Assembly (NCBI RefSeq): GCF_002261335.1
Contig: NZ_NEVL01000002.1
Location: 558,001 to 622,000 of the forward strand
DNA from: Bordetella genomosp. 1
GTDB taxonomy: Bacteria; Pseudomonadota; Gammaproteobacteria; Burkholderiales; Burkholderiaceae_B
Direction: 5' to 3'
Length of the DNA: 64,000 bases
A program made the position numbers and the translations under genes. The notes beneath the pieces are model-generated. The model saw only the letters and a list, made by a program, of their open reading frames with translations, was not told where the DNA came from and searched no databases. Positions 23,535-37,713 of this stretch are shown piece after piece. How positions within the stretch are numbered: position 1 is the stretch's first letter; every line of letters begins with the position of its first letter.

Positions 23535-24233
23535 CTAGCGGGTGTACGCATCAGTCCGGCCGGTCTGGCCCGACAATTGGGGAGCGGTGGCGCTGCCGGT
23601 CAGGAAAAGACTGTAATGGTCACCGGGTTGCAGGGCGGGCAGGGCCCAGGTCTGGCTCACCGCCTGGCCGCACGTGGCCGTCAGGGAGGCGGTCACGGGG
23701 TTGATGGCGCGGGCCTTGGAGGTGGCGGTGGCGACGTCCGCAAACAGCGTGGGGCCGCTCACCACCGTCAGGCTGCCAGCCGGGCAGTCCTTGGCCAGAT
23801 TGTAGAACCGGATTTCCGCCTTGAGGGCATCCTGGTTGCCGTTGGTGTCGTCCAGCACCTGGAACGGGCGGGCCGCCCCGGGCGTGGGCAGCAGCGTGTT
23901 GAACGTGTCGGGGCCCACTTCGAAGGCGCCGGCGGGCTTGCCGTTGATCGTCACGTCGAAGGTCTGTCCGCCCTTGACGATGGCGTAGCTGCTGGCGCGC
24001 TGCTTCGGGCCGATTTCCTGCTCGGGGCCGTTGGCCAGCTTCACCTTGATCGGGTCGGTGCCGGGGTTCACCAGGCGCACGAACGACGAGCCGACGGGCG
24101 GACGGGCCGCGTACAACTGGGCGAAGGCGCCCTCGGCATGGACGGCGGGCGCGGCCAGTGCGGTGAGCGCGGCCAGCGCGGCGGCCATCGTGGCGGCCTG
24201 CAGGCCGGCTTGCGGTCGGGAAACTCGGGTCAT
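23535..24233 (-). CDS. algF: AlgF-like periplasmic polysaccharide acetylation protein
   Basis: 232 residues from the ATG at 24233, which overlaps the stop of the ligase gene (ATGA). A signal peptide ends near residue 33 (APAVHA-E). The mature protein is beta-rich with the AlgF-type opening LYAARPPVGSSFVRLVNPG and the later IGPKQRASSYAIVKGG. In alginate systems AlgF works in the periplasm with AlgI and AlgJ/AlgX to place O-acetyl groups on the polymer. Here it is the last clear member of the polysaccharide operon. The symbol is by homology; no alginate synthase is present, so the polymer is a different one. Confidence 0.78.
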   Translation of the reverse strand: MTRVSRPQAGLQAATMAAALAALTALAAPAVHAEGAFAQLYAARPPVGSSFVRLVNPGTDPIKVKLANGPEQEIGPKQRASSYAIVKGGQTFDVTINGKPAGAFEVGPDTFNTLLPTPGAARPFQVLDDTNGNQDALKAEIRFYNLAKDCPAGSLTVVSGPTLFADVATATSKARAINPVTASLTATCGQAVSQTWALPALQPGDHYSLFLTGSATAPQLSGQTGRTDAYTR

Positions 24234-25705
24234 TTTGCTTTCTCCGTGGCCTTGCTCGTGCGCGCGTCCAGATACATGCGCTCGAGCTTCTTGCGGTCCA
24301 CCTTGTCGCTGTTGGTCGTTGGGAACAGGTCGCACGCGATCAGTTCCGAGGGGATCATGTAGGGCGGCATGCGCACGCCCAGCAGTTGCTTCCAGTCGGC
24401 CAGCGCCGGCGGCAGCGGGCTCAGGCCCGGCGCGCCCGCCTGGGCGAGTTCGACGAAGCCGATCATGCGCACCAGCGTGCCGTCCGGGCGGCGCAGCGCC
24501 ACCGTGGCGCCGGCGCGCACGCCGGGCAGGGTGGCCAGCGCCGCGTCGACTTCGGCCAGCTCGATGCGGTAGCCGTGCATCTTGATCTGGTCGTCCTTGC
24601 GGCCGCGGAAGGTCACCAGGCCGTCGGCATCGATCTCGCCCAGGTCGCCGCTGCGGTAGGCCCGCTTGCCGTTGTGCATGAACAGCACGTTCTGGTCGAG
24701 GTCGGGCCGGTTGAGGTAGCCGTACATTACGTGGTCGCCCGCCATGCAGATCTCGCCGTCGACCAGGAACACCTCCGCGTAGGGCTTGGCGCGACCGATC
24801 GGGAAGGGATTGGGCGCCTTCTTGCGCATCGCCGGATCGATTTCCACGTAGGTGGTCGAGCAGGTGGCCTCGGTGGGACCGTAGGAATTGATGATGCGCA
24901 CGCTCGGAAAGCGCGTCCACAGCTCTTCGGCCAGCGTGGGCGTGAGCGACTCGGCGCCGAACACGAACACCCGCAGGTCGGGCAGGTGCGCGTGGTTGAA
25001 ATCCTCGTTGAACAGCTGCTGGCGCACGAAGGAGGGCGTGGAGGCCCAGACCTCGATGTGGTTGTGCGCCAGGTAATCGACGAATTCGTCGCGCTGGCCG
25101 ATCACCTCGCGCGGGCACAGCACGCAGACCCCGCCCAGCACCAGCGCGCCGCAGATGTCGAACAACGAGAAGTCGAACGAGAACAGCATCTGGTTCATGA
25201 ACGCCGGGGCGGGCCCGAGGTGCAGGCAGTCGCGGATCCAGCCGGCGAACAGCGCCACGCTCTCGCGGCCGATCTGCACGCCCTTCGGGTCGCCGGTGCT
25301 GCCCGAGGTGAACATGATGTAGGCCAGGCCGGGCTGCGCGAGCGGCTGCGGATCGCTGCTGGCCGCTTCGAACCGGTCGGCCGTGGCGTCGTAGCGCAGC
25401 GGCGCGTGCACGATCTCGCCGATGCGCTGGATACGTTGCAGCGGATTGATGGTGTCGACCGGCACATAGGTCACGCCCATGCGCAGGCAGCCGATCATGG
25501 CCACCAGGAAGGCGGCCTCCTTGTGGCCGGAGATCACCAGGGCCGGCCCGGGGGCGATGCCCGCGGCACGGGCCCGGGCCATCCAGGCGTCGGTCGCCGC
25601 GCGCAGCTCGCCCCAGCTCATGGTGCCGCGCGCATCCTGGATCGCGGGCGCGTCGGGGGCCGTGTCGAGGTCGGCGAAATCGTAGAGATCGAAGTCGAAA
25701 CGCAT
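24230..25705 (-). CDS. dltA: DltA-like amino-acid (or acyl) adenylating ligase
   Basis: 491 residues, an ANL-superfamily adenylation enzyme. The motifs are A3 FTSGSTGDPKG, A5 NSYGPTEAT, A7 YRSGDLG, A8 GRKDDQIKMHGYRIELAEVD, and the catalytic Lys in NSDKVDRKKL. The segment FSFDFSLFDICGAL resembles DltA (D-alanine-carrier ligase) more than fatty-acyl ligases. It lies 45 bp after the carrier-protein gene and overlaps the algF-like gene. It is predicted to activate a small amino or carboxylic acid and load it on the 79-residue carrier for transfer by the MBOAT protein. D-alanine is the best guess; the pocket cannot be resolved by eye. Confidence 0.85.
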   Translation of the reverse strand: MRFDFDLYDFADLDTAPDAPAIQDARGTMSWGELRAATDAWMARARAAGIAPGPALVISGHKEAAFLVAMIGCLRMGVTYVPVDTINPLQRIQRIGEIVHAPLRYDATADRFEAASSDPQPLAQPGLAYIMFTSGSTGDPKGVQIGRESVALFAGWIRDCLHLGPAPAFMNQMLFSFDFSLFDICGALVLGGVCVLCPREVIGQRDEFVDYLAHNHIEVWASTPSFVRQQLFNEDFNHAHLPDLRVFVFGAESLTPTLAEELWTRFPSVRIINSYGPTEATCSTTYVEIDPAMRKKAPNPFPIGRAKPYAEVFLVDGEICMAGDHVMYGYLNRPDLDQNVLFMHNGKRAYRSGDLGEIDADGLVTFRGRKDDQIKMHGYRIELAEVDAALATLPGVRAGATVALRRPDGTLVRMIGFVELAQAGAPGLSPLPPALADWKQLLGVRMPPYMIPSELIACDLFPTTNSDKVDRKKLERMYLDARTSKATEKAK

Positions 25706-25750
25706 GTCCGGTACTCCTGTGCGGCGTCAGCCCCGCGGCCGGGGCGGCAA

Positions 25751-25990
25751 TCAGCTCTTCTTGTTCTCGGCGATGAACTGCGCCAGCGCCTGCACCGATT
25801 CCAGGTGCACGTCGATCTCGGTCGGGGGGATCTTCACGCCGAACTTGCGCTCGACCGCCAGCGCCACGTCGACCGCCGACAGCGAGTCGATCAGGCCGGA
25901 TTCGACCAGCAGCGTATCGGCATCGACCTTGGTGAGGATCACGCCTTCGATGATGTCGGCGACTTGTTGTTCGAGTGCTTGCATGTCCAT
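25751..25990 (-). CDS. Acyl/D-alanyl carrier protein (DltC-like)
   Basis: 79 residues, acidic and helical. The phosphopantetheine attachment site is Ser36 in GLIDSLSAVD, followed by a second carrier-protein helix (VERKFGVKIPPTEIDV). The site context resembles DltC and stand-alone carrier proteins rather than fatty-acid AcpP (DSLDTVE). ATG codons at 25990 and 25984 are both possible. It sits between the MBOAT gene (19 bp upstream) and the DltA-like ligase (45 bp downstream), the same trio as in dlt operons. Confidence 0.88.
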   Translation of the reverse strand: MDMQALEQQVADIIEGVILTKVDADTLLVESGLIDSLSAVDVALAVERKFGVKIPPTEIDVHLESVQALAQFIAENKKS

Positions 25991-26009
25991 GACGGCTCCA
26001 GTGCGGGGT

Positions 26010-27593
26010 TCAGAATTGGAAATAGAGGAAGCGGGTCTCTTTGTGCAGATTCAGCAGGCACAGCGCCAGCAGAAGCAGCATCACGCCCAGCCAGGCCAGG
26101 TTCGGCTGCCAGCGCATCCACGGCGTGGGGGCGGGATTGGCGCGCACCAGCGCGGGCGAGTAGCGGCCCATGATCTGGTGTGCGTTCGGCGTGAACCACA
26201 CGATGGCGAGCAGCACGATCACGTACAGCAGCTGGATGTGGCGGCCGGCCAGCATGCGCCAGCCGTCGGCGAACGACACGCCCGACAGGTAGGAGAACGT
26301 CTCCAGCCCTTCAAAGCCGCGCAGGCCCATCATGCCCTGGACCAGCAGCCAGGCGTCGGCGGTGCTGTGCGCGCGGAAGAAGGCCTGCGCCACCAGCACC
26401 GCGACGAAGGTCAGCAGCAGGTAGCCGATCTTGGTCAGGCGGCCGGTCTGGCGCGCCGAGGCGGCCTGCCGGCCCACCACGAAGATGCGCCAGGCGTGGT
26501 TGATCGACAGATAGCCCGCGTGCAGCAGGCCGAACACCAGGTACTGCAGGCCGGCGCCGTGCCAGATGCCCGCCAGGCCCATCGTGAAGACCGTGGGCAG
26601 CACGATGGTGGAGGCGAAGCCGCCGAGCGTGGCCACGCCCGCCGCGCCCACGGGCTTGTCGCGATTGGTGCGCCAGCGCGACACGGCCATCGCCACCGGA
26701 TAGTAGAGATAGGCCGTGAGATAACGGGTGAGCGTGATGTGCCAGCGCGCCCAGAAGTCGATGATGCTCGAGGCCTTGTAGGGCGAGTTGAAGTTCAGCG
26801 GGAAGCGGATGCCGAACATCTTGGCCAGGCCCAGCGCCATGTCGGAGTAGCCGGAGAAGTCGAAATACAGCTGCAGCGCGTAGCTGGTGCTGGCACCCCA
26901 GGCGGCCCAGAACTGCAGCGTGCCGGGCTCGGCGAAACCGGCGTCGGCGTAGGGCGCGATCGAGTCCGCCAGCAGCACCTTCTTGGTCAGCCCGATCAGG
27001 AACAGCATGCCGCCGATCGACAGGTTCTCCGAGCGGAAGCGGTAGTTATCGCGCTGGGCGAACTGCGGCATCATCTCCTTGTGATGCAGGATCGGGCCGG
27101 CGATCAGGTGCGGGAAGAACGTCACGAACAGCACGTACGACAGCAGGCTGCGCTCGTTGACGACGCCGGCGCGGCAGTCGAGCAGGTAGCCGATCTGGGT
27201 GAACGTGAAGAACGAGATCCCCAGCGGCAGCAGGATGTCGTCGACCGGGCCGCCGTTGCCGATCCCCATGCCATGCAGGAAATTCACCAGCGTGACGAAG
27301 TACTTGTAGTGGAACAGCAGCACCAGGTCGCCCGCCACGCCCAGGCCGGTCACCAGCAGCTGCAGCCTGGGCCGCGCCGCGAGGCTCAGGATGATCTGGC
27401 TGACCACGTAGTTGAACGCGATGGAGCCGGCCAGCAGCACCACGAACTGCGGGTTCCACCAGCCGTAGAACACGATGGAGGTGATGCACAGCCACAGCGC
27501 CGCCAGCCGCAGGCTGATGGCGCCGACGGCGTAGTGCACGGCCAGCGTGATCGGCAGGAAAACCAGCAGGAACAGATAGGAGTTGAAAAGCAT
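26010..27593 (-). CDS. algI: MBOAT-family O-acyltransferase (AlgI/DltB-like)
   Basis: 527 residues with about 11-12 hydrophobic segments. The MBOAT catalytic His is about residue 345 in AGIWHGAGLQYLVFGLLHAG; the upstream SYALQLYFDFSGYSDMA and GWWNPQF segments are also typical. AlgI moves acetyl groups, and DltB D-alanyl groups, across the inner membrane toward periplasmic transferases. Length fits AlgI (about 520) better than DltB (about 400). With both a carrier/ligase pair and AlgJ/X/F-like proteins beside it, either donor is possible. Confidence 0.9.
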   Translation of the reverse strand: MLFNSYLFLLVFLPITLAVHYAVGAISLRLAALWLCITSIVFYGWWNPQFVVLLAGSIAFNYVVSQIILSLAARPRLQLLVTGLGVAGDLVLLFHYKYFVTLVNFLHGMGIGNGGPVDDILLPLGISFFTFTQIGYLLDCRAGVVNERSLLSYVLFVTFFPHLIAGPILHHKEMMPQFAQRDNYRFRSENLSIGGMLFLIGLTKKVLLADSIAPYADAGFAEPGTLQFWAAWGASTSYALQLYFDFSGYSDMALGLAKMFGIRFPLNFNSPYKASSIIDFWARWHITLTRYLTAYLYYPVAMAVSRWRTNRDKPVGAAGVATLGGFASTIVLPTVFTMGLAGIWHGAGLQYLVFGLLHAGYLSINHAWRIFVVGRQAASARQTGRLTKIGYLLLTFVAVLVAQAFFRAHSTADAWLLVQGMMGLRGFEGLETFSYLSGVSFADGWRMLAGRHIQLLYVIVLLAIVWFTPNAHQIMGRYSPALVRANPAPTPWMRWQPNLAWLGVMLLLLALCLLNLHKETRFLYFQF

Positions 27594-27609
27594 CGCGGCG
27601 TCGTCGTTG

Positions 27610-28812
27610 TTATTTGAGGGCGGCGAGGGCCGTGCGTTCTTCCGGGGTGAGCGGCAGCGACAGCGCCATCTCCGAAAATTCCCAGATCACGAGCTTCAGG
27701 CTCTTGGGCCATTTCTGTTGCTGCTTGAACGCGCCCAGCAGGGCGCCGGAAAACTGGCCGCCGTCCATGCTGAGGTTCCAGACCTCGCGCCCGAGGCGAT
27801 CGCCCAGGCGCTCGGCAAACAGGCTGCGCAGGCCGTTGGAGCTGCCCGCGAGCAGCACCTCCACCGGCGGCGTGTCGTCGAGCAGGCCCCCGCCGCGCAC
27901 CGGAGCGATGGTCTGCTTCGGCTCCTGATCCAGCGGCGGGCGCCAGGCGGCGGGTGCGTGTTCCAGGCCCGCCAGCACGATCAGGTCGCCCATGCGCGGC
28001 TCCGGGGCGCCGGGCGGATCGACCTTGAACGTCTGCGGACCGCGCCCGCCCAGCAGCGGCAGCGCGGCGTCGGCCACGGCATTGGCCGCCGCCTGTGCGC
28101 CGACGGCGGTCATGTGCACGTCGGTATGGAAGAACCGCGGCGCATCGCCCTTGGCCAGCGCCGGCCGCAGATCCACGTACGGCACCCTGTAGCTGCCCAG
28201 CGCCTGCTGCCAGGCGTCGAGCCGCTGGCGCATCGATTCGGCGTAGGGCAGGCCGCAGAGCCCGTCGGACTGGATGCGCGACTTGTCGGGCACGGGCACG
28301 ACCAGCACCTGCACGCCCTGCTGGCGCAGCCGGTCGACCCAGTGCTGCATCAGTTTGATGCGGTCTTCGAAGGCGCCGCGCACGCCCGGTTGCGGGCGCA
28401 ACCCATCACGATAGAAGAGCCAGTCCGGGCAGCCCAGCGCCACCTGCGGGCCGAGGTCGCCGAGCAGCCGGTAGCGCGCGGCAGCCGTGGTCGTGTCGAG
28501 CTCCGCCTGGATGGGCAGGCGCAGCGCGGCGTTCAGCGCGTTGCCGGCGTGGCCGTCGAGCCAGGCGGACGGGGCGAGCTGGTCGCGGCTGACGTTGGCG
28601 TGCGCCAGCATCCAGATGCCGGAGACGCCCCCCACCGCCAGCAGGCCTGCCACCACGAAGGCGGTCAGGCGGTGCGAAGGCTCGGGGCCGCTGGGCGCGG
28701 GCGCCCCCCCGGCTTTCTTGATGCCGGGACCGCCGGCCTTGGCGGCCAGCTTGCCTGCCGCCATGCCCGGCGCGGTCTCGGCGCCCGATGCGTTCGGCTC
28801 TTGCACGCTCAT
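27610..28812 (-). CDS. algJ: AlgJ/AlgX-type SGNH O-acyltransferase, membrane-anchored
   Basis: 400 residues. A Gly/Pro-rich cytosolic N-terminus of about 48 residues precedes one membrane anchor (about 49-70, LTAFVVAGLLAVGGVSGIWML). The periplasmic SGNH domain shows CPDWLFYRDGL, VVPVPDKSRI, the Asp-x-His pair in FFHTDVHMTAVGA, and a Ser motif LLAGSSNGLRS. In alginate systems AlgJ and AlgX pass acyl groups from AlgI to the polymer. The stop is 4 bp after the AlgX-like gene's... neighbouring boundary on the same strand, and the MBOAT start follows 16 bp later, so it is in the operon. The N-terminal extension is longer than usual. Confidence 0.82.
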   Translation of the reverse strand: MSVQEPNASGAETAPGMAAGKLAAKAGGPGIKKAGGAPAPSGPEPSHRLTAFVVAGLLAVGGVSGIWMLAHANVSRDQLAPSAWLDGHAGNALNAALRLPIQAELDTTTAAARYRLLGDLGPQVALGCPDWLFYRDGLRPQPGVRGAFEDRIKLMQHWVDRLRQQGVQVLVVPVPDKSRIQSDGLCGLPYAESMRQRLDAWQQALGSYRVPYVDLRPALAKGDAPRFFHTDVHMTAVGAQAAANAVADAALPLLGGRGPQTFKVDPPGAPEPRMGDLIVLAGLEHAPAAWRPPLDQEPKQTIAPVRGGGLLDDTPPVEVLLAGSSNGLRSLFAERLGDRLGREVWNLSMDGGQFSGALLGAFKQQQKWPKSLKLVIWEFSEMALSLPLTPEERTALAALK

Positions 28813-28816
28813 GGTG

Positions 28817-29812
28817 TCATTGCCCCAGGGCGCGGCGCATGCGGCTGCGGAACGTGTCGGGCGTCATGATGGAGGCGTTGTCCCACAGTCCCTGCGCGTT
28901 CGGCCCCTGCGAATAGGCCGGCTCGAACATCTGCCACACCAGCACCTGCGGCGGGTTCTGCTTGAACGCGGGCGACTCGAGGTATTCGAGCAGCATGACC
29001 CAGTGGCCGATGTTGCCCGGCTTCCAGTTCACCGAGACCGGGCGGTCCAGTTCGTTGGAGAGCTTTTGCGGGAAGCCGAAGTAGGGCTGGACCATGCTGT
29101 GGCCGGTCACGTGCACCGGCGCCGGCGCGTCGTCGAGCAGGCCCTGGTTCTCGGCCTGGCGGCGCACCGTGAAGGTGTCGCGGCCGATCTGCTTGCGCTG
29201 GTCGGCGGTCAGGAACAGCTCGGCCAGGTCGCCGTAGCGGCGTTCGTTGAACTCCTTGCCCAGCGCCATGCCCGTGCCCGGCTTGCCGGACAGGTTCTTG
29301 ATGTTCTGCTTGATGTCCGCGGCGACGGCCACGGCGGTCGCGTCGGCGGCGGCCTGGGTCCAGTGCTGGTCGCTGCGGTAGAACACGTCGGCGCCGCCGT
29401 CCTTCACCTTCTTCAGCACGGCCGCGTCGTCGATCGCGCGGATCTGCGCATTGCGCAGCTTGCCGAGGATGAGCTGGTAGCGGCCCTGCACCGCGGCGCT
29501 CAGCTTCTTGTCGGCCGGCATCTTGTCTTCGTAGAAGCGGGTCTTGTCCGGCAGCACCAGCACCTGCAGCTCGATGTTGCGCTTGGCCAGCGCGTCGCGC
29601 GTTTCCTTGATGAGCTGGGTGGCGTTGTCGATGCCCGCGGTGTCGACCTGGGTCAGGCTGCCCCAGGCGGGGAACAGCCAGCCGTCCTTGCCCTGGAACA
29701 CGATCGAGGAGCCCGCCTGGGCATGGGCCGCGCCGATGCCGGCCAGCGTCAGCACGGCCGCGGCGAGCGGGCGGCGCAGGCCGCCGAGCGATTGGATGAA
29801 CGAAGGTTTCAA
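28817..29812 (-). CDS. algX: AlgX-like periplasmic SGNH protein (TTG start)
   Basis: 331 residues if started at TTG 29812. This codon follows GAGGAG by six bases and begins a clean signal peptide (KPSFIQSLGG to AAHA-Q). There is no in-frame ATG near it, and the longer open frame upstream lies inside nfrA. The ALGX/ALGJ SGNH-like domain has GKDGWLFPAWGS, VLVLPDKTRFY, DVFYRSDQHWT (Asp-x-His) and the Ser motif VTGHSMVQPY. It is predicted to transfer acyl groups to the exported polysaccharide in the periplasm. It begins 29 bp after nfrA and ends 4 bp before the AlgJ-like gene. Confidence 0.83.
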   Translation of the reverse strand: MKPSFIQSLGGLRRPLAAAVLTLAGIGAAHAQAGSSIVFQGKDGWLFPAWGSLTQVDTAGIDNATQLIKETRDALAKRNIELQVLVLPDKTRFYEDKMPADKKLSAAVQGRYQLILGKLRNAQIRAIDDAAVLKKVKDGGADVFYRSDQHWTQAAADATAVAVAADIKQNIKNLSGKPGTGMALGKEFNERRYGDLAELFLTADQRKQIGRDTFTVRRQAENQGLLDDAPAPVHVTGHSMVQPYFGFPQKLSNELDRPVSVNWKPGNIGHWVMLLEYLESPAFKQNPPQVLVWQMFEPAYSQGPNAQGLWDNASIMTPDTFRSRMRRALGQ

Positions 29813-29841
29813 GAAAGTCTCCTCAAGCAGATTGGCGCGTA

Positions 29842-32610
29842 TCAGTAGTAGACCGTCACGGTCATGAAAAAGCCCTTGGCGCGTTCGGTCGCGCCGCCGC
29901 CGATCGGGATCCGGTACTGCATCGACATGTTGAAATACGATTGCGGCGCGTTGTAGTGGTCTTCGCGGAACCAATAACGGAAGTCCAGGCCGGGACCCGC
30001 GCCGAGCGACCAGCTCTTGCCGTTGCCCGAGAGGTCGTAGCTGAGTTCGCCGAGGTTGCCGCCGTAGTCCACGCCGGTCGCGCGATTCTTCTGCCAGAGC
30101 CAGTCGGCCGCCACCACCGCGTGCGGGTACACCACCAGGCGGTTGCTGATGCTGTCCAGGCGGAAGCTCTGGCCGGCGCGCAGCTCGGCCGAGGCGAACA
30201 CCTGGTCGCGCTTGAGCTTGCCGGTGGAATGGATGTCGCGCCCGGGCGCGCCGTTGGCCGTGGTGCCCTGGATGGTGTAGCGCGCCGTGTTGCTGTCCCA
30301 GGCGTAGCCGAGCTGCGAATAGCCTTCGACGGTGAGCCAGCTCGGCACGTCCGAACGCAGGCTGTTGCCGAAGTAGTAGCCGTAGGTCATGTACGTCATC
30401 CAGCCGCCGGCGTCGCCGTTGAGCTTGTACTTGGCGGCCGTGTTGGCCTCGGCGGCGTTGTCGAAGTCGGTGCGGATGTCGCACTGCGTGCTGCGCGAGG
30501 CCGGGTTCAGCGAGCCCTTGCGCGTGGCGGTGCCGAGGAAGAAGCGCCGTTCCAGGCCGAACGACAGGCCCGTGTCCGCCAGCGCATAACGCAGGCCGAG
30601 CGAGCCGATCGTGCTGGGCCAGCCGGTCACGGACGAACTGCGCTGGCTCTGGTCGGTGTCCTGGTCGGGCAGCACGCCACAGGGATCGACGAAGCGGGTC
30701 GAGCGGAACTCGCTGCCGCCGTCATAGATCGTGTTCGACAGGCGTCCGTAGGCTTCGAGCGTGCCGTAGCGGTTGTTGGTGGCGGGCGGGCGCCAGAACA
30801 CTTCGGCGGTGCTGAACGCGGCGTCGCCCGGCGTGCTGATGGCCGCGCCGTCGAGGCTGCTGGAGGCCGGCCGCGCGCCGCGGAAGCCCACCGACGCGAT
30901 GGCGCCCCATTCGCGCGAGAGGCCGGCGATGGCGCCGCGCGTGTTCTCGCGCTGTTGGTCGTCGAGTTGCAGCGCCCCGGTGTCGGCCAGGTCGATCGCG
31001 TGCTTGAGCTGCTGCACGGCCTGGCGGTTCTCGCCCATCGCCGACAGCGCATAGGCCTCGTCGAGCACCACGGTGGGCGGCGCCTTGCCCGTGTCGCGCG
31101 CGGCGCGGAAATCCTGCAGCGCGCGGTCGGGCTGGCCCAGGCGCTGGCGCAGGTAGGCGCGCTGCATCAGCAGCGAGGGATCCTGCGGCGTCTGGGCGAG
31201 CGATTCGTTCAGGCGTTTTTCGGCCAGCGCGGCCTGTTCCTTGTTGCCCGATGCCAGCGTGGTGGTCAGCAGCTGCTGCAGGCCGGCGTTGTTCGGGTCG
31301 GCATCGACCGCGGCCTGCGCCTGGCGGATGGCTTCCTGGTAGTCCTGGCGGCCGTAGGCGGCGTAGGCCAGCGATGCCGGGCCGCTGCCGCCGCCCAGCG
31401 CATCCGACGGCGCCAGTTCGCACTGGGTGCCGTAGGGCGTGTCGTGGCAGTCCTGCACCGGCGGCGGATAGTTCGCCAGCGTGAGCTGCCGCGGCGCGCT
31501 GTTGCTGCGCGCGTTCTTGAGCCTGCGCGCCACCGCGTCGTCCTTGGCGTCGAGCGGCTTGATCAGCTCGAGCGCGCGTTGCGGCTTGCCGGCGGCCAGG
31601 GCGGCGTCGGCGGCGATCAGGCGGATGTTGCGGCGCTGGTCGTCGTCGAGCCAGTCCTGCTTGAGCGCGGTATCGAAGTCGGTGTTGGCCGCCTCGGTCT
31701 TGCCCTGGCGCTGGCGCAGATAGCCGCGCATCGTCAGCGCCACGGTGTTCTCGTCGTCGTAGGCGATGGCGTCGCTGGCGGCCTGTTCGGCCTCGGCGAG
31801 CTGGTTGCTCAGCATCAGCGAGGTGATGAGCAGCAGGCGGTGGGTGCCCACGTCGGGCGCGAGCCGGACGGCCTCGCGCGCGTACGGCACGGCCTCCTCG
31901 GGACGGTTGGCGATCAGGGCCTGGTAGCCGTTCTCGGCGGGCTTGACCGCCATGCGACGCTTGAGCGTCTGGCGTCGCGCATCCAGGTCGGTCTTGTTGG
32001 GCGCGCCCAGTTTCAGCGCGGTTTCGGCAGCCTGTTCGGCGTCGCCCAGGCGGTTCTGCGCCTCGAGCGAATCGATCCACAGCAGGGCCCACGGGCCCTG
32101 CGTCGGGTCGGTGCGGAAGGCGCGCTCGGCGCCCGCGGCCGCGGCCGTCATGTCGCCGCGGTTGTAGTCGGCGTAGGCCTTGGTGGCGAACGGGAAGGCG
32201 CGGTTATAGGCGGCGCTGCGGCCGTTGCCGGCCGGCGCGCCCGCCGCCGGACCCTGGCGCAGGTTGGTCACCGCCGCGCGCAGCCCGGGGTCGTCGACGC
32301 CCTGCTTCAGCGCGGCCTGTGCGGCCTCGCGCGCCTCCTTGATGCGACCCAGCTTCTGCAGCGTGTAGACCTTCAGCAGTTGCAGGCGGGCGACGTCGGG
32401 GCGGGTCTTGAGCGCGCCGTTGACCTGCTCGAGGGCCTCGGCATACTTGCCCGCCTCGTAGCTCTTGTAGGCCTGGTCGGCGTACTGCCAGGCGTCGCCG
32501 GTCAGCGGTGCCTCTTCTGCCGCCACGGCGGCGCGCGCCGGCAGCAGGGACGTGCCGGTGGCGGCGCACAAGGCAGCCGCCAGAAGCAGGGGGCGCGAGA
32601 GTGCAATCAT
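29842..32610 (-). CDS. nfrA: NfrA-like outer-membrane TPR/porin for polysaccharide export
   Basis: 922 residues. A signal peptide (about 1-30, ending AAVA-A) precedes a long TPR-rich periplasmic region (about 35-580; repeated A-x-Y-x-R/A-x-x-D-x-x-x-A helices). The C-terminal beta-barrel domain (about 580-922) ends in alternating residues and terminal aromatic Tyr-Tyr, as in outer-membrane proteins, and matches the NfrA C-terminal family. In E. coli, NfrA is the outer-membrane receptor of phage N4 and exports the NfrB-made glycan. The ATG overlaps the nfrB stop by 4 bp. The TPR-plus-barrel layout also recalls BcsC/PgaA exporters. Confidence 0.88.
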   Translation of the reverse strand: MIALSRPLLLAAALCAATGTSLLPARAAVAAEEAPLTGDAWQYADQAYKSYEAGKYAEALEQVNGALKTRPDVARLQLLKVYTLQKLGRIKEAREAAQAALKQGVDDPGLRAAVTNLRQGPAAGAPAGNGRSAAYNRAFPFATKAYADYNRGDMTAAAAGAERAFRTDPTQGPWALLWIDSLEAQNRLGDAEQAAETALKLGAPNKTDLDARRQTLKRRMAVKPAENGYQALIANRPEEAVPYAREAVRLAPDVGTHRLLLITSLMLSNQLAEAEQAASDAIAYDDENTVALTMRGYLRQRQGKTEAANTDFDTALKQDWLDDDQRRNIRLIAADAALAAGKPQRALELIKPLDAKDDAVARRLKNARSNSAPRQLTLANYPPPVQDCHDTPYGTQCELAPSDALGGGSGPASLAYAAYGRQDYQEAIRQAQAAVDADPNNAGLQQLLTTTLASGNKEQAALAEKRLNESLAQTPQDPSLLMQRAYLRQRLGQPDRALQDFRAARDTGKAPPTVVLDEAYALSAMGENRQAVQQLKHAIDLADTGALQLDDQQRENTRGAIAGLSREWGAIASVGFRGARPASSSLDGAAISTPGDAAFSTAEVFWRPPATNNRYGTLEAYGRLSNTIYDGGSEFRSTRFVDPCGVLPDQDTDQSQRSSSVTGWPSTIGSLGLRYALADTGLSFGLERRFFLGTATRKGSLNPASRSTQCDIRTDFDNAAEANTAAKYKLNGDAGGWMTYMTYGYYFGNSLRSDVPSWLTVEGYSQLGYAWDSNTARYTIQGTTANGAPGRDIHSTGKLKRDQVFASAELRAGQSFRLDSISNRLVVYPHAVVAADWLWQKNRATGVDYGGNLGELSYDLSGNGKSWSLGAGPGLDFRYWFREDHYNAPQSYFNMSMQYRIPIGGGATERAKGFFMTVTVYY

Positions 32611-34310
32611 GTTGTGTTTTGTTTTTCTTCGGCCGGAGCCGGATGGGGATGATTCGGGGTCGAGTTGCCGTGCTGATAGGAGATCGCTTCCTTCAGCGTG
32701 GGCTCGTCGAGCCAGCCCTGCTCGAGCAGGATCTGGCCCAGGGGCTTGTGCTCGGTGCTTTGCAACGCCAGGGCTTTGTGCAGGTGTTCTTCATCGACGG
32801 CGCGCCACGACAGCAGCAGGTCGCCCAGGCGCTGGCGCTGTTGCGTCAGCTGATCGGCCGAGGGGAAGTCGTGCATCGTCTTGTCCCACACCAGGCGCTT
32901 GCGCAGGAACAGGTGGCCGAGATAGAGCCGCCAGGCGCGTGCGGCCGCCATGGCGTTGATGAAGTTGCCCACGATCATGCGCGGCGCGGAGAGCAGCGCG
33001 TGCTCCCAGCCATAGAGCCGGCCCACGAACCAGGCCCGCTGGAACACGCGCGCGCCCAGCAGGATGGTGTTGATCCACATCAGGTTCATCACCCAGCTGT
33101 TGGGCGTGAACGCGGCAGGGTAGAACGTGGTCCAGAGGCCCGTGGCGTTGAGCAGCAGAAACAGCAGGAACTGCGCCAGCAGCAGGTAGGCCACCATCGC
33201 GACGAACGAGGTGAACAGGCCCTTGCGGTCGCGGAACAGCAGGTACTTGGTGGCGAGCGTGCCGGTCCAGCCCACCTGCTGCCAGCCCTGCAGCCCGATG
33301 CCCAGCGTCCAGCGCGCCTTCTGGCGGTAGGCCGTGCGGAAGGTGTTGGGGAAGTACTCGCGCACGCCCAGCGGCATGTGCACCGCCACCATCTTCTCGC
33401 GGCCCAGGCCGAACCAGGTCTTGCGCTTGGCCACGTAGTCGACCGGGAACTTGCCGAAGATCTGCTTCATGCCGCGCTGCGAGAGGCGGGCGCCGATGTC
33501 GTAGTCTTCGGTCAGCGTGTCGGTGTTGAAGGGCTGGTTGTGCGTCTGGGCGGCCAGGTCGAGCAGCGCGCGGCGCGAGAAGCAGGTGCCCACCCCGGCC
33601 GACGGCACCATGCGCGACAGGCTTTCGCGCACCACCAGGTCCTTGGTGTGCCACTCGGCGAACTCGTCCATGTAGGTGCCGGCCACGAACTCGTGCCAGT
33701 TGCGCTCGAGCGAGGTCACCGGCAGCTGGATGAAGTCGATGCGCGGCAGCAGGTAGTTGAAGTACTTCAGTTCGAGCGGGTGCAGCACGTCTTCGCTGTC
33801 GTGCAGGATCACGCCGGCGAAGGGTTCGGGCTGCTTGGCGTCCTGCGCGAAGATCGCCTGCACGATCCAGTTCAGGCAGTCGGCCTTGCAGGTGGGACCA
33901 TCGTGCGGCACCTCGACGCGCACCAGCTGCCGGTAGCGCAGCTTCATGCGCTCGACTTCCTGGATGGTGCGGGCATCGTTCTGGTAGGTGCCGGCGAAGA
34001 TCATGTAGTTTTTGTATTCGAGCGTGGCGACCATGTTTTCCAACATGGCCGCGATCACGTCGTACTCCAGCCAGGCCGGCACCATGATGGCCAGCGGCTG
34101 TTCCGGTTTCGCGCGCAACTGTTCGGCGGTCAGCGCCTTGTAGCGGCGCTTGACCGTGACCGAGCGCCACGCCTCGCGGATCCAGTACCAGAGGTCGATG
34201 AACAGATCATCCAGGCTGGACAGCATGATGAGCACGCCTACGATCACGGTCAGGATTTCCAGACCGCGATAGTAGTCGGCGACCAGATAGGGCCAGTAGA
34301 GCGAAGACAT
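32607..34310 (-). CDS. nfrB: NfrB-like family 2 glycosyltransferase with C-terminal MshEN (c-di-GMP) domain
   Basis: 567 residues. An N-terminal membrane segment (about 16-36) is followed by a GT2 domain: acidic motif LHDSEDVLHP (about 167-177), TEDYDIG (about 266) and QKARW (about 328). A cluster of membrane segments (about 365-450) follows. The C-terminal region (about 490-550), with RLGDLL-x12-LHKAL and LGQILLEQGWLDE, matches the MshEN c-di-GMP-binding fold. E. coli NfrB polymerises ManNAc from UDP-ManNAc made by WecB under c-di-GMP control. wecB is in this same operon. It is expected to be the inner-membrane synthase and translocator of the polymer. Confidence 0.9.
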   Translation of the reverse strand: MSSLYWPYLVADYYRGLEILTVIVGVLIMLSSLDDLFIDLWYWIREAWRSVTVKRRYKALTAEQLRAKPEQPLAIMVPAWLEYDVIAAMLENMVATLEYKNYMIFAGTYQNDARTIQEVERMKLRYRQLVRVEVPHDGPTCKADCLNWIVQAIFAQDAKQPEPFAGVILHDSEDVLHPLELKYFNYLLPRIDFIQLPVTSLERNWHEFVAGTYMDEFAEWHTKDLVVRESLSRMVPSAGVGTCFSRRALLDLAAQTHNQPFNTDTLTEDYDIGARLSQRGMKQIFGKFPVDYVAKRKTWFGLGREKMVAVHMPLGVREYFPNTFRTAYRQKARWTLGIGLQGWQQVGWTGTLATKYLLFRDRKGLFTSFVAMVAYLLLAQFLLFLLLNATGLWTTFYPAAFTPNSWVMNLMWINTILLGARVFQRAWFVGRLYGWEHALLSAPRMIVGNFINAMAAARAWRLYLGHLFLRKRLVWDKTMHDFPSADQLTQQRQRLGDLLLSWRAVDEEHLHKALALQSTEHKPLGQILLEQGWLDEPTLKEAISYQHGNSTPNHPHPAPAEEKQNTT

Positions 34311-34325
34311 GGTCGCCCGCCGCCG

Positions 34326-36533
34326 TCAATGGTTCTTGCTGCGCTTGTTGGCGCGGCGCGCCATCACGGCCAGGACGATGGCGAGCAGCAGCAGGATGCC
34401 GATCAGCGGAACGCCCCAGGCGAGATACTGACGCCATTCGTAGAACGGGCCGCCGCCCATGCCCGCGGGCTGGCTCAGCCCGGGATCGGTGGTGTCGACC
34501 CAGGCCAGCGCACCGCGCTCGCCCAGCACCACGGCGTTGCCGCGCGTCAGCATGAAGCTCTCGCCGATGCGGGCCGGATGCTCGCCCAGCGCCTGCCACA
34601 GAATGCCGTTCTGCGTGCCCGACTTCACCACCGCGGCGGTGCTCAGGCGGTCCGGGCCTTCCAGGTCGAGCCAGGGTTGCTGGTCCTGCGCGCGGCCGCT
34701 CACCGTCAGGCGCTTGCCGTCGGTCACGCTGATCGGCGGCTTGGCGCCGTCGACCGGCACGCCCATCGAGAGGAACGGCTTGGTCGGCTTGAACGGCTGC
34801 GCGCCGTCGGCCACCACCAGCTCGGTGCGCACCGGCGACAGGGCGCTGGCGTTGGCGAGGTTGACGAGGTTCTGCAGCGTGGTGACCGGCGCGTCGAGCG
34901 CGGCCTGCGGCACCAGCAGCTGCGGCGAGCCGGCCAGCAGCGGCAGCAGGCCGACGAAGGTGCCGTCCGGCTCGGCGCTGGCGGCGCGCACGAAGCTGGT
35001 GGGCAGCACGTTGACCGGGAAGCCCTGCGGCGTTTCCGCACAGTTGGGCGAGACCGGCTGGCGCTGGAACGACACGCGCAGGTTGTTGGTCACGCCCAGC
35101 GCGTAGCCGGGCACGCGCGCCACGAGGCGCTCCGGGTGGCCGTCGGCGTCGAGTTGCTTGGCGTTGAGCAGCACGCCGTTCCAGAGCACCGAGGCGACCG
35201 GCTTGGTCACCGAGGCGCCGGGGGCGGCGGCCAGGTCGAGCACCAGCTCGCCCGGGATGCGGCCGTCGCTGGACACGGCGGCCAGCGGGAACGCGAGGTT
35301 CCAGTCGCCGCGCGTGGTCACGTCGAAGGCGGTGGTCGAGCCGCCCAGCAGGCTCAGGCGCGTGGTGTCGCTACCGTAGGTGCCGGCCTGGCCGGCCTGG
35401 TAGACGGTGGCCTGGCGCGAGGTCAGGACACGGCGCCAGATGCTGTCGAACACGCCGGCCGCCTGGGCGCCCGCGTCGGGCGACACCGAGATCACCGGCT
35501 GGTGACCCAGCATCGCCACCTTGATCTGCTGCGCGGCCGGCTTGTCGCTGGCGAGCGAGGCGTGGCGTTCGCGCCATTGGGCCAGCGCCTGGGTGGCGTC
35601 GGCATCGCCCTGCAGCTGCGCGCCGAGCGCGTCGAGCGCGGCGTTGATCTGGCCGATCAGCGCGGTATCGGTGATGGCGAGGTCGCCCGGCACGGCGCCG
35701 AGCACCAGCAGCGCGCCGACCTCGGCGGGATCGGCCAGCTTGTGGCCGTCCTTGCCGTTGAGCGCCGCGAAGGCCGGCACGTTGGCCAGCGCCGCCGGCA
35801 CCTGCACGCCCTTGAATGTCACCTCGTCGCCCACGGCGGGCAGGGCCCGCACGCGGGCGTGCTTGCCCGCGCGCTCGAGCGCCACGCCCACGCGCCAGGC
35901 GGCGTCGAAGCTTTGTTTGTCGAGCTTGCCGTTGGCGACCAGCAGCACCGGATTGCCGGGCAGGGTGTGCCAGGCGTCGTCGAGCCCGCCCACGGTGTGC
36001 GCGGCATAACGATAGGTCAGGCGCGTGTCGGGCGACAGCGTCAGCACGTTGGCCGTGCGGCGATCGGATTCGCACAGGCGCAGCCCGATCGGCGAGCTCC
36101 AGTTCACGCTCAGCTGCACGAAGCCCGAATCGCGGGAGCGCGTGTCCACCGTCAGCGGCCGGCTCAGGTTGCCTTCACGATCCACCACGCGCTGCGCCAC
36201 CACCGGGCGGCCATCGACCGCGACGTTGAGGGTGGCGGGCACGTCCTCGCCCTTCAGGTAATTGCCTTCAAGCGTGAGCGCCACGTCCGAGAGGGCGACG
36301 CCGCGCGGCACCGGCAGGTAGAACTCCTGGCGGTTGTCGCTCTGGTCCAGCACGACGGGGTTGCCGATGCCGAGGTCCTTCAGCGAGAGGGAGCGCTGCA
36401 CCAGGCCATCACGGCCGAGTTCATGCAGCGCATCGCTCGCGGGGCTGGCGTAGGCGGCGGCCGGCACGGAAAGGCTGGCCAGCAGCAGCGCACGTCGCAC
36501 GGCATGAAGGCGGAAATTGCGGTTAGTGGTCAT
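34326..36533 (-). CDS. bcsB: BcsB-like periplasmic membrane-anchored synthase subunit
   Basis: 735 residues. A signal peptide (about 1-29, AAAYA-S) precedes BcsB-type beta domains (LSLKDLGIGNPVVLDQSDNR, YLPVPRGVAL, VQLSVNWSSPIGL, GNPVLLVANGKLD) and a C-terminal membrane anchor (about 706-727, GVPLIGILLLLAIVLAVM). In cellulose synthases BcsB guides the nascent glucan through the periplasm beside BcsA. No BcsA is encoded here; NfrB follows 15 bp later and is the presumed partner. The symbol denotes family, not cellulose production. Confidence 0.85.
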   Translation of the reverse strand: MTTNRNFRLHAVRRALLLASLSVPAAAYASPASDALHELGRDGLVQRSLSLKDLGIGNPVVLDQSDNRQEFYLPVPRGVALSDVALTLEGNYLKGEDVPATLNVAVDGRPVVAQRVVDREGNLSRPLTVDTRSRDSGFVQLSVNWSSPIGLRLCESDRRTANVLTLSPDTRLTYRYAAHTVGGLDDAWHTLPGNPVLLVANGKLDKQSFDAAWRVGVALERAGKHARVRALPAVGDEVTFKGVQVPAALANVPAFAALNGKDGHKLADPAEVGALLVLGAVPGDLAITDTALIGQINAALDALGAQLQGDADATQALAQWRERHASLASDKPAAQQIKVAMLGHQPVISVSPDAGAQAAGVFDSIWRRVLTSRQATVYQAGQAGTYGSDTTRLSLLGGSTTAFDVTTRGDWNLAFPLAAVSSDGRIPGELVLDLAAAPGASVTKPVASVLWNGVLLNAKQLDADGHPERLVARVPGYALGVTNNLRVSFQRQPVSPNCAETPQGFPVNVLPTSFVRAASAEPDGTFVGLLPLLAGSPQLLVPQAALDAPVTTLQNLVNLANASALSPVRTELVVADGAQPFKPTKPFLSMGVPVDGAKPPISVTDGKRLTVSGRAQDQQPWLDLEGPDRLSTAAVVKSGTQNGILWQALGEHPARIGESFMLTRGNAVVLGERGALAWVDTTDPGLSQPAGMGGGPFYEWRQYLAWGVPLIGILLLLAIVLAVMARRANKRSKNH

Positions 36534-36552
36534 GGATGGACTTGGAGGCGGA

Positions 36553-37713
36553 TCAATGGGAGAGGGCCACGTGCGGCCGGCTGGGATCGAATTCGTTCAC
36601 CTCGCGGCCCAGCAGGGCCGCCACGATACGCGCGCTCGCATGCCCGTCACCATACGGGTTGATGCCGCGTGCGAAGCGTTCATAGTGCGCCGGATCATCG
36701 AGCAGCGCATTGACCTCGCGTACGATGCGCGCGGACTCCGTGCCCACCAGCGCCACCGTGCCGGCGGCGAGGGCTTCGGGCCGCTCCGTCACGTCACGCA
36801 TCACCAGCACGGGCTTGCCCAGGTGAGGGGCTTCCTCCTGGACACCGCCGGAGTCGGTGAGAATGATGTGGGCGCGTCGCATGAACCAAACAAAGTCCAG
36901 ATAATCGAGGGGATCGATGAGGTGCACATTCGATAGTCCCGACAGCGTGCCCATCACCACCTCGCGCACTTGCGGGTTGAGATGCACCGGATAGACGATA
37001 TCCAGGTCATCGCGCTTCGCGAGTGTGGCGAGGGCCGCGCAGATATTGCGGAAGCCTTCGCCAAAGCTTTCACGGCGGTGTCCGGTGACGAGCAAAAGTC
37101 GGCGGTCCGGATTCTGCCAGTGGTATTTGGATGACAGCGCTGTATTTAATGCCTGGTCAGTGTCAAGCTTTGTTAATGTCAGGTCCAGGGCATCGATCAC
37201 GGTATTTCCCGTGACGAAAATCCGGCCCTGCAGATTTTCTTTTTGCAGATTCGCGCGCGACGTCACCGTGGGCGCGAATAACCATTGACCCACCACGTCG
37301 ACGACGCGGCGATTCATTTCTTCGGGAAAGGGCTGTGCCAGATTGCCGGTGCGCAATCCCGCTTCGACGTGGCCGACGGGGATGCGGCGATGAAACGCCG
37401 CGAGGCTGCACGCGGTGGCGGTGCTGGTGTCGCCGTGCACCAGCACGACGTCGGGCCGGACCGTTTCGAGCAGCGCGTCCACGCGGCTCATGATGCGGGA
37501 AAACAGGCCGTTCAGCGTCTGGTTCGGCACCATCACATCGAGGTCGTGATCGGCGCGGATCTCGAACAGCTCGAGCACCTGGTCGAGCATCTGGCGATGC
37601 TGACCCGTGACGCACACGATGCTCTCGATCGCGCTTTCCCGCTGTAATGCCCGCACCAGCGGGACCATTTTGATGGCCTCGGGCCGCGTACCAAAAATCG
37701 ACAGGATCTTCAT
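36553..37713 (-). CDS. wecB: UDP-N-acetylglucosamine 2-epimerase (non-hydrolysing)
   Basis: 386 residues from the ATG at 37713 (MKILSIFGTRPEAIKM); an in-frame TTG four codons upstream is less likely. Diagnostic segments are VHGDTSTATACSLAAF, GHVEAGLRTGN, FPEEMNRR, NPQVREVV and LTDSGGVQEEAPHLGKPVLVMRDVTERPE. The enzyme converts UDP-GlcNAc to UDP-ManNAc in the cytosol. It is the first gene of the exopolysaccharide operon, 19 bp before the BcsB-like gene. This supports a ManNAc-containing polymer as the product of NfrB, as in the E. coli N4 glycan receptor. The AT-rich region upstream (37714-37870) must contain the operon promoter. Confidence 0.95.
   Translation of the reverse strand: MKILSIFGTRPEAIKMVPLVRALQRESAIESIVCVTGQHRQMLDQVLELFEIRADHDLDVMVPNQTLNGLFSRIMSRVDALLETVRPDVVLVHGDTSTATACSLAAFHRRIPVGHVEAGLRTGNLAQPFPEEMNRRVVDVVGQWLFAPTVTSRANLQKENLQGRIFVTGNTVIDALDLTLTKLDTDQALNTALSSKYHWQNPDRRLLLVTGHRRESFGEGFRNICAALATLAKRDDLDIVYPVHLNPQVREVVMGTLSGLSNVHLIDPLDYLDFVWFMRRAHIILTDSGGVQEEAPHLGKPVLVMRDVTERPEALAAGTVALVGTESARIVREVNALLDDPAHYERFARGINPYGDGHASARIVAALLGREVNEFDPSRPHVALSH

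What the first reader, a model, noticed from the sequence alone, without database searches (positions are those of the whole stretch)
23535..37713. Hybrid exopolysaccharide operon: NfrAB-WecB core fused with BcsB, Alg-type acetylation and Dlt-type acid activation
Seen: ten closely packed minus-strand genes (4-bp overlaps to 45-bp gaps) in the order wecB, bcsB-like, nfrB, nfrA, algX-like, algJ-like, MBOAT, carrier protein, dltA-like ligase, algF-like. Known: E. coli NfrA/NfrB/WecB make and export a ManNAc polymer used by phage N4, controlled by c-di-GMP; AlgI/J/X/F acetylate alginate; DltA/C/B activate and transfer D-alanine. Inference: this operon makes a c-di-GMP-regulated ManNAc-rich exopolysaccharide decorated in the periplasm with acetyl and/or amino-acyl groups. 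I know of no description of this exact combination.
Basis: partly seen in the sequence, partly recalled or inferred. Interest (0 to 1): 0.88.

Follow-up and report, generated by a model that had tools for sequence, protein, structure and literature searches.

The report
Exopolysaccharide operon with carrier-fed acylation cassette
This is a real operon for a c-di-GMP-controlled surface polysaccharide that carries its own gene kit for activating what is probably an amino acid, possibly oxidising it on a carrier protein, and attaching it to the polymer; the polymer core has been noted in print before, but the kit is an unusual mixture of two acylation machineries.

Summary
The ten-gene minus-strand array is real and its family names hold, BcsB only remotely. 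The core is not new: Sellner et al. 2021 (PMC8669472) reported nfrA, nfrB and wecB clustered with a BcsB homologue and O-acetyltransferases in Achromobacter. Two parts were missed: an acyl-CoA-dehydrogenase gene (ACAD, 22396-23523), 5-32 nt behind algF in 29 of 30 distinct genomes with this operon, and a convergent gene (19062-20114) of E. coli YbcH's family. The ligase is not a D-alanine ligase: all 30 share a pocket lacking the D-Ala cysteine, which 15 of 15 Dlt-type ligases, one from the same genome, keep. The MBOAT ends in the FxYxxF acyl-tyrosine motif (32 of 32), yet sits beside a carrier protein and ligase, which a 2025 study says such systems lack. In two close Lysobacteraceae loci, algX-algJ-MBOAT-ACP-ligase-algF-ACAD is present or absent as one block between nfrA and the YbcH-family gene. 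Best reading: a Nfr-type polymer O-acylated with a carrier-activated, probably oxidised, non-D-Ala amino acid. No substrate or product was measured.

The parts
36553..37713 (-). wecB (nfrC): UDP-GlcNAc 2-epimerase, makes UDP-ManNAc
   Evidence: TIGR00236 477 bits against a cut-off of 210; R10 and K15 invariant in 15 of 15 aligned rows
34326..36533 (-). BcsB-like periplasmic/inner-membrane subunit (735 aa), remote BcsB relative
   Evidence: Pfam BcsB 17.1 bits, below cut-off 21; hhalign probability 77.7%, E 1.9e-5, collinear; no convincing PDB match by sequence, best E 0.22
32607..34310 (-). nfrB: processive GT2 synthase with C-terminal MshEN c-di-GMP domain (residues 494-546); shorter than E. 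coli NfrB
   Evidence: 42% identical to E. coli NfrB
29842..32610 (-). nfrA: TPR repeats plus NfrA_C, outer-membrane export porin
   Evidence: NfrA_C 83 bits and TPR repeats
28817..29812 (-). AlgX/AlgJ-like SGNH acyltransferase (331 aa, TTG start)
   Evidence: ALGX 241 bits; nearest PDB AlgJ 4o8v, then AlgX; D148, H150, S239 in 33 of 33 rows
27610..28812 (-). AlgJ-like SGNH acyltransferase (400 aa)
   Evidence: ALGX 218 bits; nearest PDB AlgJ 4o8v; D231, H233, S325 in 33 of 33 rows
26010..27593 (-). MBOAT with C-terminal RFLYFQF (FxYxxF acyl-tyrosine motif)
   Evidence: H345 in 34 of 34 rows
25751..25990 (-). stand-alone carrier protein (79 aa, GLIDSL, Ser36)
   Evidence: PP-binding 38 bits; Ser in 47 of 47 rows
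24230..25705 (-). DltA-family amino-acid adenylating ligase with a non-D-Ala pocket (D178 F179 F182 A221 V248 G250 S274 C282 S283)
23535..24233 (-). AlgF-like acylation adaptor (232 aa)
   Evidence: Pfam AlgF 53.6 bits, cut-off 34.4
   Evidence: three Acyl-CoA_dh domains; catalytic Glu240 in 31 of 31 rows; 5-32 nt after algF in 31 rows, 29 distinct genomes
19062..20114 (+). DUF4434 / YbcH-family gene, convergent, associated with nfr loci
   Evidence: DUF4434 193 bits; E. coli YbcH 235 bits to the same family; homologue in 28 of 28 loci L003-L030
20954..21958 (+). 2-hydroxyacid dehydrogenase lying between the acyl-CoA dehydrogenase and DUF4434; probably not part of the system
   Evidence: 2-Hacid_dh_C 170 bits; no hit of more than 45% identity in any of the 91 loci held

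Best explanation
The locus is a Nfr-type exopolysaccharide system (WecB makes UDP-ManNAc, NfrB polymerises under c-di-GMP control with a BcsB-like partner, NfrA exports, and a YbcH/DUF4434 protein assists) into which a seven-gene acylation cassette is plugged: algX-algJ-MBOAT-ACP-ligase-algF-ACAD. The ligase adenylates an amino acid other than D-alanine and loads it on the carrier protein. The flavin dehydrogenase oxidises the carrier-bound aminoacyl thioester (alpha,beta-desaturation; with proline it would give a pyrroline or pyrrole). The MBOAT takes the acyl group from the carrier onto its own C-terminal tyrosine across the membrane, and the two SGNH proteins, helped by AlgF, transfer it to hydroxyls of the polymer. 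Shown here by sequence: gene content, conservation, pocket divergence, catalytic residues, the motif, and block presence/absence. Inferred: every chemical step, the identity of the amino acid, and that the dehydrogenase acts on the carrier-bound acyl group.
For: ACAD in 27 of 28 loci L003-L030 and 29 of 30 distinct genomes in all, 5-32 nt behind algF, in five families (labels). In 250 family genomes the 16 with a ligase of at least 72% identity are exactly the 16 with an ACAD of at least 77%, the two within about 2.2 kb in each (coordinates). Pocket DFFA[VML]G.SCS in 32 rows, 30 distinct genomes, against DL[YF]VLC.TVA in 15 of 15 Dlt/dra-type ligases compared (15 of the 45 lower-identity hits other than G870); the amine-binding Asp is kept. 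PMC11253843 passages: L198 and C269 contact the D-Ala methyl, and C269 would clash with L-Ala; here they are F and G. FxYxxF in 32 of 32 distinct operon MBOATs and 0 of 15 dra MBOATs; each of these 32 has a carrier and a ligase gene close by, in G171 on the opposite strand just past algF. Where that neighbouring ligase has a Dlt-type pocket (G171) or an intermediate one (L051), the ACAD is absent. L050 (no cassette) and L024 (cassette) share neighbours on both sides, with two flanking genes 93-98% identical in DNA, and their NfrB proteins are sisters.
Against: The ACAD resembles long-chain acyl-CoA dehydrogenases (2pg0 380 bits, LCAD 367) more than the known prolyl-carrier dehydrogenases (4irn 163, 5zw0 141), and only 3 positions are nearly fixed for a different residue against 12 relatives of 54-64% identity, around which catabolic-type genes were found where profiled. 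L016 has the same ligase pocket but no ACAD, so the acyl machinery does not strictly need it. Pairwise distances of ACAD correlate with ligase (r 0.93) and MBOAT (0.94) but nearly as well with the backbone gene nfrB (0.91), so they say little beyond shared descent. The correlation of pocket and ACAD rests on single exceptions (G171, L051, L016).
Confidence: 0.5

Rival explanations
1. Carrier-fed aminoacylation without oxidation: the cassette attaches an unmodified small L-amino acid or glycine, and the acyl-CoA dehydrogenase is a passenger or only recycles by-products.
For: Ligase and carrier without ACAD occur in L051 and L016; the ACAD is close to catabolic enzymes.
Against: ACAD retained 5-32 nt behind algF in 29 of 30 distinct genomes of five families, and present or absent together with the cassette (L024 against L050).
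Confidence: 0.23
2. Ordinary O-acetylation: MBOAT, AlgJ, AlgX and AlgF acetylate the polymer from acetyl-CoA as in alginate, and ligase, carrier and ACAD serve another pathway or a minor branch.
For: The MBOAT has the fused FxYxxF motif of acetyl-CoA users (PMC12148441 discussion); its length and partners are of the alginate kind.
Against: Carrier and ligase lie between MBOAT and algF, with a 4-nt overlap of ligase and algF, their divergence tracks the MBOAT (r 0.96), and even in G171, where they are not in the operon, a carrier-ligase pair lies just past algF on the other strand.
Confidence: 0.12
3. D-alanylation of the polymer in the manner of Dlt.
For: DltA is the closest characterised stand-alone ligase family, the carrier resembles DltC, and in G171 the ligase next to a related operon has the Dlt-type pocket.
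Against: L198, C269 and V301 of DltA are F, G and C here; the same genome has a second locus with DltD, short MBOAT, carrier and a ligase that keeps L and C, so D-alanylation is already served.
Confidence: 0.08
4. Pyrrole-2-carboxyl (or pyrroline) decoration from L-proline, as in PltF/PltL/PltE-type pathways (a special case of the best explanation).
For: Same three protein classes (stand-alone adenylating ligase, carrier, ACAD-fold dehydrogenase), an analogy recalled from the literature; PltF 6o6e and prolyl-carrier dehydrogenases are among the PDB hits.
Against: Neither enzyme is closest to its prolyl counterpart; the proline pocket was not compared because no prolyl-ligase sequence was in hand.
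Confidence: 0.07

Closest known systems
E. coli NfrA/NfrB/WecB (NGR glycan, phage N4 receptor; Sellner 2021, Junkermeier and Hengge 2021)
   Same: WecB, NfrB with GT motifs and MshEN, NfrA, and a DUF4434/YbcH-family gene
   Different: E. coli has no BcsB-like gene and no acylation cassette beside nfrBA-ybcH; NfrB here lacks the C-terminal extension
Achromobacter xylosoxidans nfr cluster noted by Sellner et al. 2021 (PMC8669472 section 9)
   Same: nfrA, nfrB, wecB, BcsB homologue, O-acetyltransferases
   Different: The section read does not name the ligase, carrier or acyl-CoA dehydrogenase; its Fig. S5 was not seen and may show them
Alginate acetylation AlgI/AlgJ/AlgX/AlgF
   Same: long MBOAT, two SGNH proteins, AlgF family
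   Different: Adds carrier protein, adenylating ligase and flavoenzyme; different synthase
PatA/PatB and other MBOAT-SGNH pairs (PMC12148441)
   Same: FxYxxF fused to the MBOAT C-terminus, SGNH catalytic residues
   Different: Those are described as lacking a carrier protein; this one has one
Dlt D-alanylation (DltA/B/C/D/X) and the dra-like second locus L031
   Same: Ligase-carrier-MBOAT-SGNH logic
   Different: Non-D-Ala pocket; long MBOAT with own motif; AlgX/J in place of DltD
AlmE glycylation of LPS (from PMC11253843 passages)
   Same: Gram-negative stand-alone aminoacyl ligase for envelope modification
   Different: AlmE keeps the L and C residues that this ligase has replaced
Prolyl-carrier modules (PltE/F/L, PigA/G/I; recalled)
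   Same: Ligase plus carrier plus ACAD-fold dehydrogenase
   Different: Sequence not closest; product there is a small molecule, not a polymer ester (recalled)

Membership tests
Nfr/NGR exopolysaccharide system | NfrB with GT2 catalytic residues (D, D/TED, QxxRW) | tested here: met
   Invariant in 49-50 of 50 rows, the odd one a gap; alignment with E. coli NfrB
Nfr/NGR exopolysaccharide system | NCBIfam NfrB equivalog cut-off (NF008411, 1170 bits) | tested here: not met
   584 bits; the protein passes PRK15489 instead (933 against 537) and is 567 aa against a 723-position model
Nfr/NGR exopolysaccharide system | MshEN c-di-GMP domain on NfrB | tested here: met
   NF053729 52.9 bits, cut-off 38; L495/G496 in 48 of 50 rows, two gaps
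Nfr/NGR exopolysaccharide system | NfrA porin with NfrA_C, linked WecB, YbcH/DUF4434 | tested here: met
Nfr/NGR exopolysaccharide system | Polymer contains ManNAc | not testable with these tools
   Needs chemistry; inferred in E. coli from wecB genetics (PMC8669472, PMC8669469)
BcsB | Pfam BcsB over its cut-off | tested here: not met
   17.1 bits against 21
BcsB | Collinear profile similarity to true BcsB | tested here: met
   hhalign probability 77.7%, E 1.9e-5; unrelated profile A2 gave 0.1%
Alg-type MBOAT/SGNH acylation | MBOAT His and C-terminal FxYxxF; SGNH Asp/His/Ser; AlgF domain | tested here: met
Alg-type MBOAT/SGNH acylation | No carrier protein (acyl-CoA donor) | tested here: not met
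   Carrier and ligase genes lie inside the array
Dlt D-alanylation | DltA D-Ala pocket (L198, C269, V301) | tested here: not met
   F, G, C in 32 of 32 rows (numbering from PMC11253843)
Dlt D-alanylation | DltA equivalog score (TIGR01734, cut-off 560) | tested here: not met
   331 bits
Dlt D-alanylation | DltD family SGNH protein and short DltB without own motif | tested here: not met
   ALGX family instead; motif present
Prolyl-carrier dehydrogenase (RedW/PigA type) | NCBIfam equivalog cut-offs (650, 500) | tested here: not met
   215.5 and 188.5 bits
Acyl-CoA dehydrogenase superfamily | N, middle and C domains and catalytic Glu | tested here: met
DUF4434/YbcH | Pfam DUF4434 over cut-off 30 | tested here: met
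   193 bits

The most novel reading that the evidence does not exclude
A third architecture for moving acyl groups across a bacterial membrane: a motif-fused, Alg/Pat-type MBOAT fed by a carrier protein instead of acyl-CoA, whose cargo is an amino acid that a flavoenzyme oxidises while it is carrier-bound, giving a c-di-GMP-controlled ManNAc-type exopolysaccharide esterified with a dehydro- or heteroaromatic amino acid. I know of no exopolysaccharide with such a substituent (recall; the one paper search aimed at it, listed 7 papers, none with such a title). The genes move as a cassette between Nfr loci.
Probability: 0.3. Interest if true: 0.85.

Novelty: new variant of a known kind. Interest (0 to 1): 0.6.

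Why it matters
Nfr-type glycans are receptors for N4-like and other phages, and PMC8669472 suggests that Achromobacter N4-like phages may use the product of this kind of cluster, so a decorated version bears on phage adsorption and on biofilm matrix chemistry. Mechanistically, PMC12148441 states that MBOAT/SGNH systems other than Dlt lack a carrier protein and carry a fused motif; this operon, in 30 distinct genomes here, looks like a natural counter-example that could be tested with a few purified proteins. If the dehydrogenase works on carrier-bound cargo, it would link secondary-metabolite chemistry to cell-surface polymers.

Tried and rejected
Considered and set aside: (a) the Pseudomonas acidic polysaccharide (Pap) locus as the same thing; passages of PMC7716237 describe different genes. 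(b) RedW/PigA orthology of the ACAD: below cut-offs. (c) That the ACAD is just a neighbour: not the simplest reading, because it is absent from L050 and present with the cassette in L024, though a passenger role is kept as a rival. (d) D-Ala as substrate: pocket replaced. (e) Solved structures for DUF4434 and the BcsB-like protein by sequence: nothing better than E 0.19 and 0.22. (f) Promoters and terminators: 4 promoter-like sites, all on the plus strand, against 1.2 expected; 10 terminator-like sites against 8.7 expected; nothing usable about transcript ends. (g) My earlier view that G171 (L034) has no carrier was wrong: a check made for this report found a carrier gene next to its Dlt-type ligase (L080); I raised the best explanation from 0.48 to 0.50, lowered plain acetylation from 0.15 to 0.12 and moved the no-oxidation rival from 0.22 to 0.23 for that reason. 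Paper searches on the combination. No paper in the lists shown joins Nfr with a carrier, adenylating ligase or acyl-CoA dehydrogenase in title or abstract start, but one search showed 20 of 94 papers and one search showed 15 of 21, most subscription papers are not held and no supplement was read, so absence from print is not shown.

L028 was left out of A5 because its fragment holds a stop; L081 was left out of A6 because both strands were open; L005 and duplicates were left out of the trees, which used 24-28 chosen rows. Of 45 lower-identity ligase hits other than G870, 15 were compared. Flanks of L003-L030 stop at 10 kb, so wecB and part of bcsB could not be seen there; of the 16 nfrB genomes without acylation genes in the stretch taken, some contigs (L038, L044, L045, L048) end within it.

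Full report
What is there. The window (G000:C2:558001-622000) comes from an unnamed member of the Bordetella/Achromobacter group: the nearest named relative of the ligase is Bordetella genomosp. 5 at 88%. Profile searches support nine of the ten names at family level, although the NfrB and DltA equivalog models are not passed. The tenth, the BcsB-like protein, falls below the Pfam BcsB cut-off (17.1 against 21 bits) but aligns collinearly with true BcsB by profile comparison (probability 77.7%, E 1.9e-5; an unrelated profile gave 0.1%), so it is best called a remote BcsB relative.

What was missed. An acyl-CoA dehydrogenase gene, 22396-23523, starts 11 nt after algF. It is present in 27 of the 28 loci brought in by the ligase (L003-L030), and the algF-to-ACAD gap is 5-32 nt in all 31 rows measured, which are 29 distinct genomes (duplicates identified). 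The order nfrB-nfrA-algX-algJ-MBOAT-ACP-ligase-algF-ACAD is complete on one strand in 26 of the 28; L005 is a short contig and L016 lacks the ACAD and has algF moved. In 250 genomes of the same family, ligase hits of 72% or more identity occur in 16 genomes, and ACAD hits of 77% or more occur in exactly those 16, within about 2.2 kb of the ligase; the next dehydrogenases are at 64% or less. Twelve regions with these weaker relatives (54-64%) were fetched; in L069 the neighbours were profiled as thiolase, short-chain dehydrogenase, IclR regulator and AMP-ligase, a neighbour in L072 as AMP-ligase, and homologues of such genes recur in several of the others. So the enzyme was probably recruited from catabolism. 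A second missed gene, 19062-20114 on the plus strand, encodes a DUF4434 protein; E. [quoted passage not shown]

The block is a unit. In the 4 operon-less genomes of the same genus that I examined (of 13), gyrA, ompA and ubiG/gph are followed by the MFS gene and the tmRNA gene; in the window everything from wecB to DUF4434 lies between gph and that MFS gene. Within the block, the acylation part behaves as a cassette. L050 and L024 are closely related by NfrB (sister rows, 100/99 support) and share the nfr genes on one side and DUF4434, a purine-type permease and an ABC-transporter ATPase gene on the other, the last two 92.6% and 97.9% identical in DNA. L024, seen only from within bcsB onwards, has algX-algJ-MBOAT-ACP-ligase-algF-ACAD between nfrA and DUF4434; L050 has none of the seven, its nfrA running straight into DUF4434. 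The dehydrogenase thus comes and goes with the acylation genes in this pair. Across genomes with NfrB (14 of 300 in the order, 7 of 369 in the class, own genome in both) 3 of 20 distinct genomes carry the full set (own, G138, G133). One (G171, L034/L080) has wecB-bcsB-nfrB-nfrA-algX-algJ-MBOAT-algF and, just past algF on the opposite strand, a carrier gene and a ligase with a Dlt-type pocket, without ACAD. Sixteen show no acylation genes in the stretch taken, some of them on short contigs. G870 (L051), found by its ligase, has carrier and ligase without the dehydrogenase.

The ligase is not a D-alanine ligase. It scores 331-334 bits on the DltA models, well below their cut-offs, and DltA structures are its nearest stand-alone PDB relatives. 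PMC11253843 (passages) names D197, L198, C269 and V301 as D-Ala contacts in B. cereus DltA, C269 being the one that would clash with L-Ala. By alignment (positions placed by motif, in agreement with the printed DltA alignments) the operon ligases have D, F, G and C there. The pocket reads DFFA[V/M/L]G-S-C-S in 32 of 32 rows (30 distinct genomes). Fifteen ligases that lie with a short MBOAT and a carrier, including one in this same genome (L031: carrier, DltD, MBOAT, ligase), read DL[Y/F]VLC-T-V-A in 15 of 15 rows; they are 15 of 45 such hits. I take these to be the Bordetella-group 'dra' D-alanylation loci; that name is recalled, seen only in a search listing. G171's ligase reads DVYVLC-T-V-A and G870's DFFAYG-G-V-S. 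The amine-binding Asp is kept throughout, so the substrate is probably an amino acid, but which one cannot be read from the pocket.

The transfer machinery is a hybrid. The MBOAT ends in RFLYFQF, which is the FxYxxF motif whose Tyr carries the acyl group in PatA (PMC12148441, passages and the whole discussion). All 32 distinct operon MBOATs have it; none of 15 dra MBOATs does. [quoted passage not shown] This operon has the fused motif and a carrier with its ligase. Both SGNH proteins keep Asp, His and Ser in 33 of 33 rows and the carrier its Ser in 47 of 47.

Mechanism. Synthesis and export follow the E. coli Nfr model: WecB supplies UDP-ManNAc, NfrB polymerises when its MshEN domain binds c-di-GMP (L495/G496 align with E. 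coli L490/G491; G491L phenotype from PMC8669472), and NfrA exports. The BcsB-like protein probably sits beside NfrB as BcsB does beside BcsA (inference). The cassette would then work as ligase to carrier, dehydrogenase on the carrier, MBOAT Tyr, SGNH Ser, polymer hydroxyl. Only the parts list, motifs and conservation are shown; each chemical step is inferred. The weakest link is the dehydrogenase: it looks like a long-chain acyl-CoA dehydrogenase, has only three positions nearly fixed for a different residue against 12 relatives, its distances correlate with nfrB (r 0.91) almost as well as with the ligase (0.93), and L016 keeps the ligase pocket without it.

Known or new. Sellner et al. 2021 (PMC8669472, section 9 read) described nfrA, nfrB and wecB clustered with a BcsB homologue and periplasmic O-acetyltransferases in A. 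xylosoxidans; Junkermeier and Hengge 2021 (PMC8669469, passages) noted an alginate-acetyltransferase-like cluster in the nfr locus of Simplicispira suum. Their figures and supplements were not seen and may show more. The lists returned by searches held no paper that by title or abstract start joins Nfr with a carrier, adenylating ligase or acyl-CoA dehydrogenase. I therefore file this as a new variant of a known kind, of fairly high interest because it runs against a stated rule about MBOAT/SGNH systems and predicts an unusual polymer substituent.

Noticed in passing
window 8133-16043 (+), tmRNA at 16552-16941 (+): A single 2636-aa ORF with regularly spaced reverse-strand ORFs, probably a large repetitive surface protein, directly upstream of the tmRNA gene.
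   Followed up: no
window 20954-21958 (+): A 2-hydroxyacid dehydrogenase gene lies between the acyl-CoA dehydrogenase and DUF4434 in the window; no hit above 45% identity in any of the 91 loci held.
   Followed up: partly
L031 5671-9806 (G000:C3): A second, Dlt/dra-type locus (carrier, DltD, short MBOAT, ligase with the D-Ala cysteine) in the same genome; some relatives in the genus carry an in-frame stop or a split in this ligase.
   Followed up: partly
L080 2797-4475 (-), continuing L034: In G171 a carrier gene and a Dlt-type ligase lie on the opposite strand just past algF of an nfr/alg operon that has no carrier of its own, with no second MBOAT in the stretch.
   Followed up: partly
L016 5276-13995: Stenotrophomonas daejeonensis has algF moved in front of algX, lacks the acyl-CoA dehydrogenase, and keeps the ligase pocket.
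   Followed up: partly
L050 7605-9771 (+): The bcsB-like gene of this cassette-less locus reads as two overlapping pieces in different frames.
   Followed up: no
L035-L037, L050: nfr loci with a bcsB-like gene but no acylation genes show the backbone on which the cassette is mounted.
   Followed up: yes
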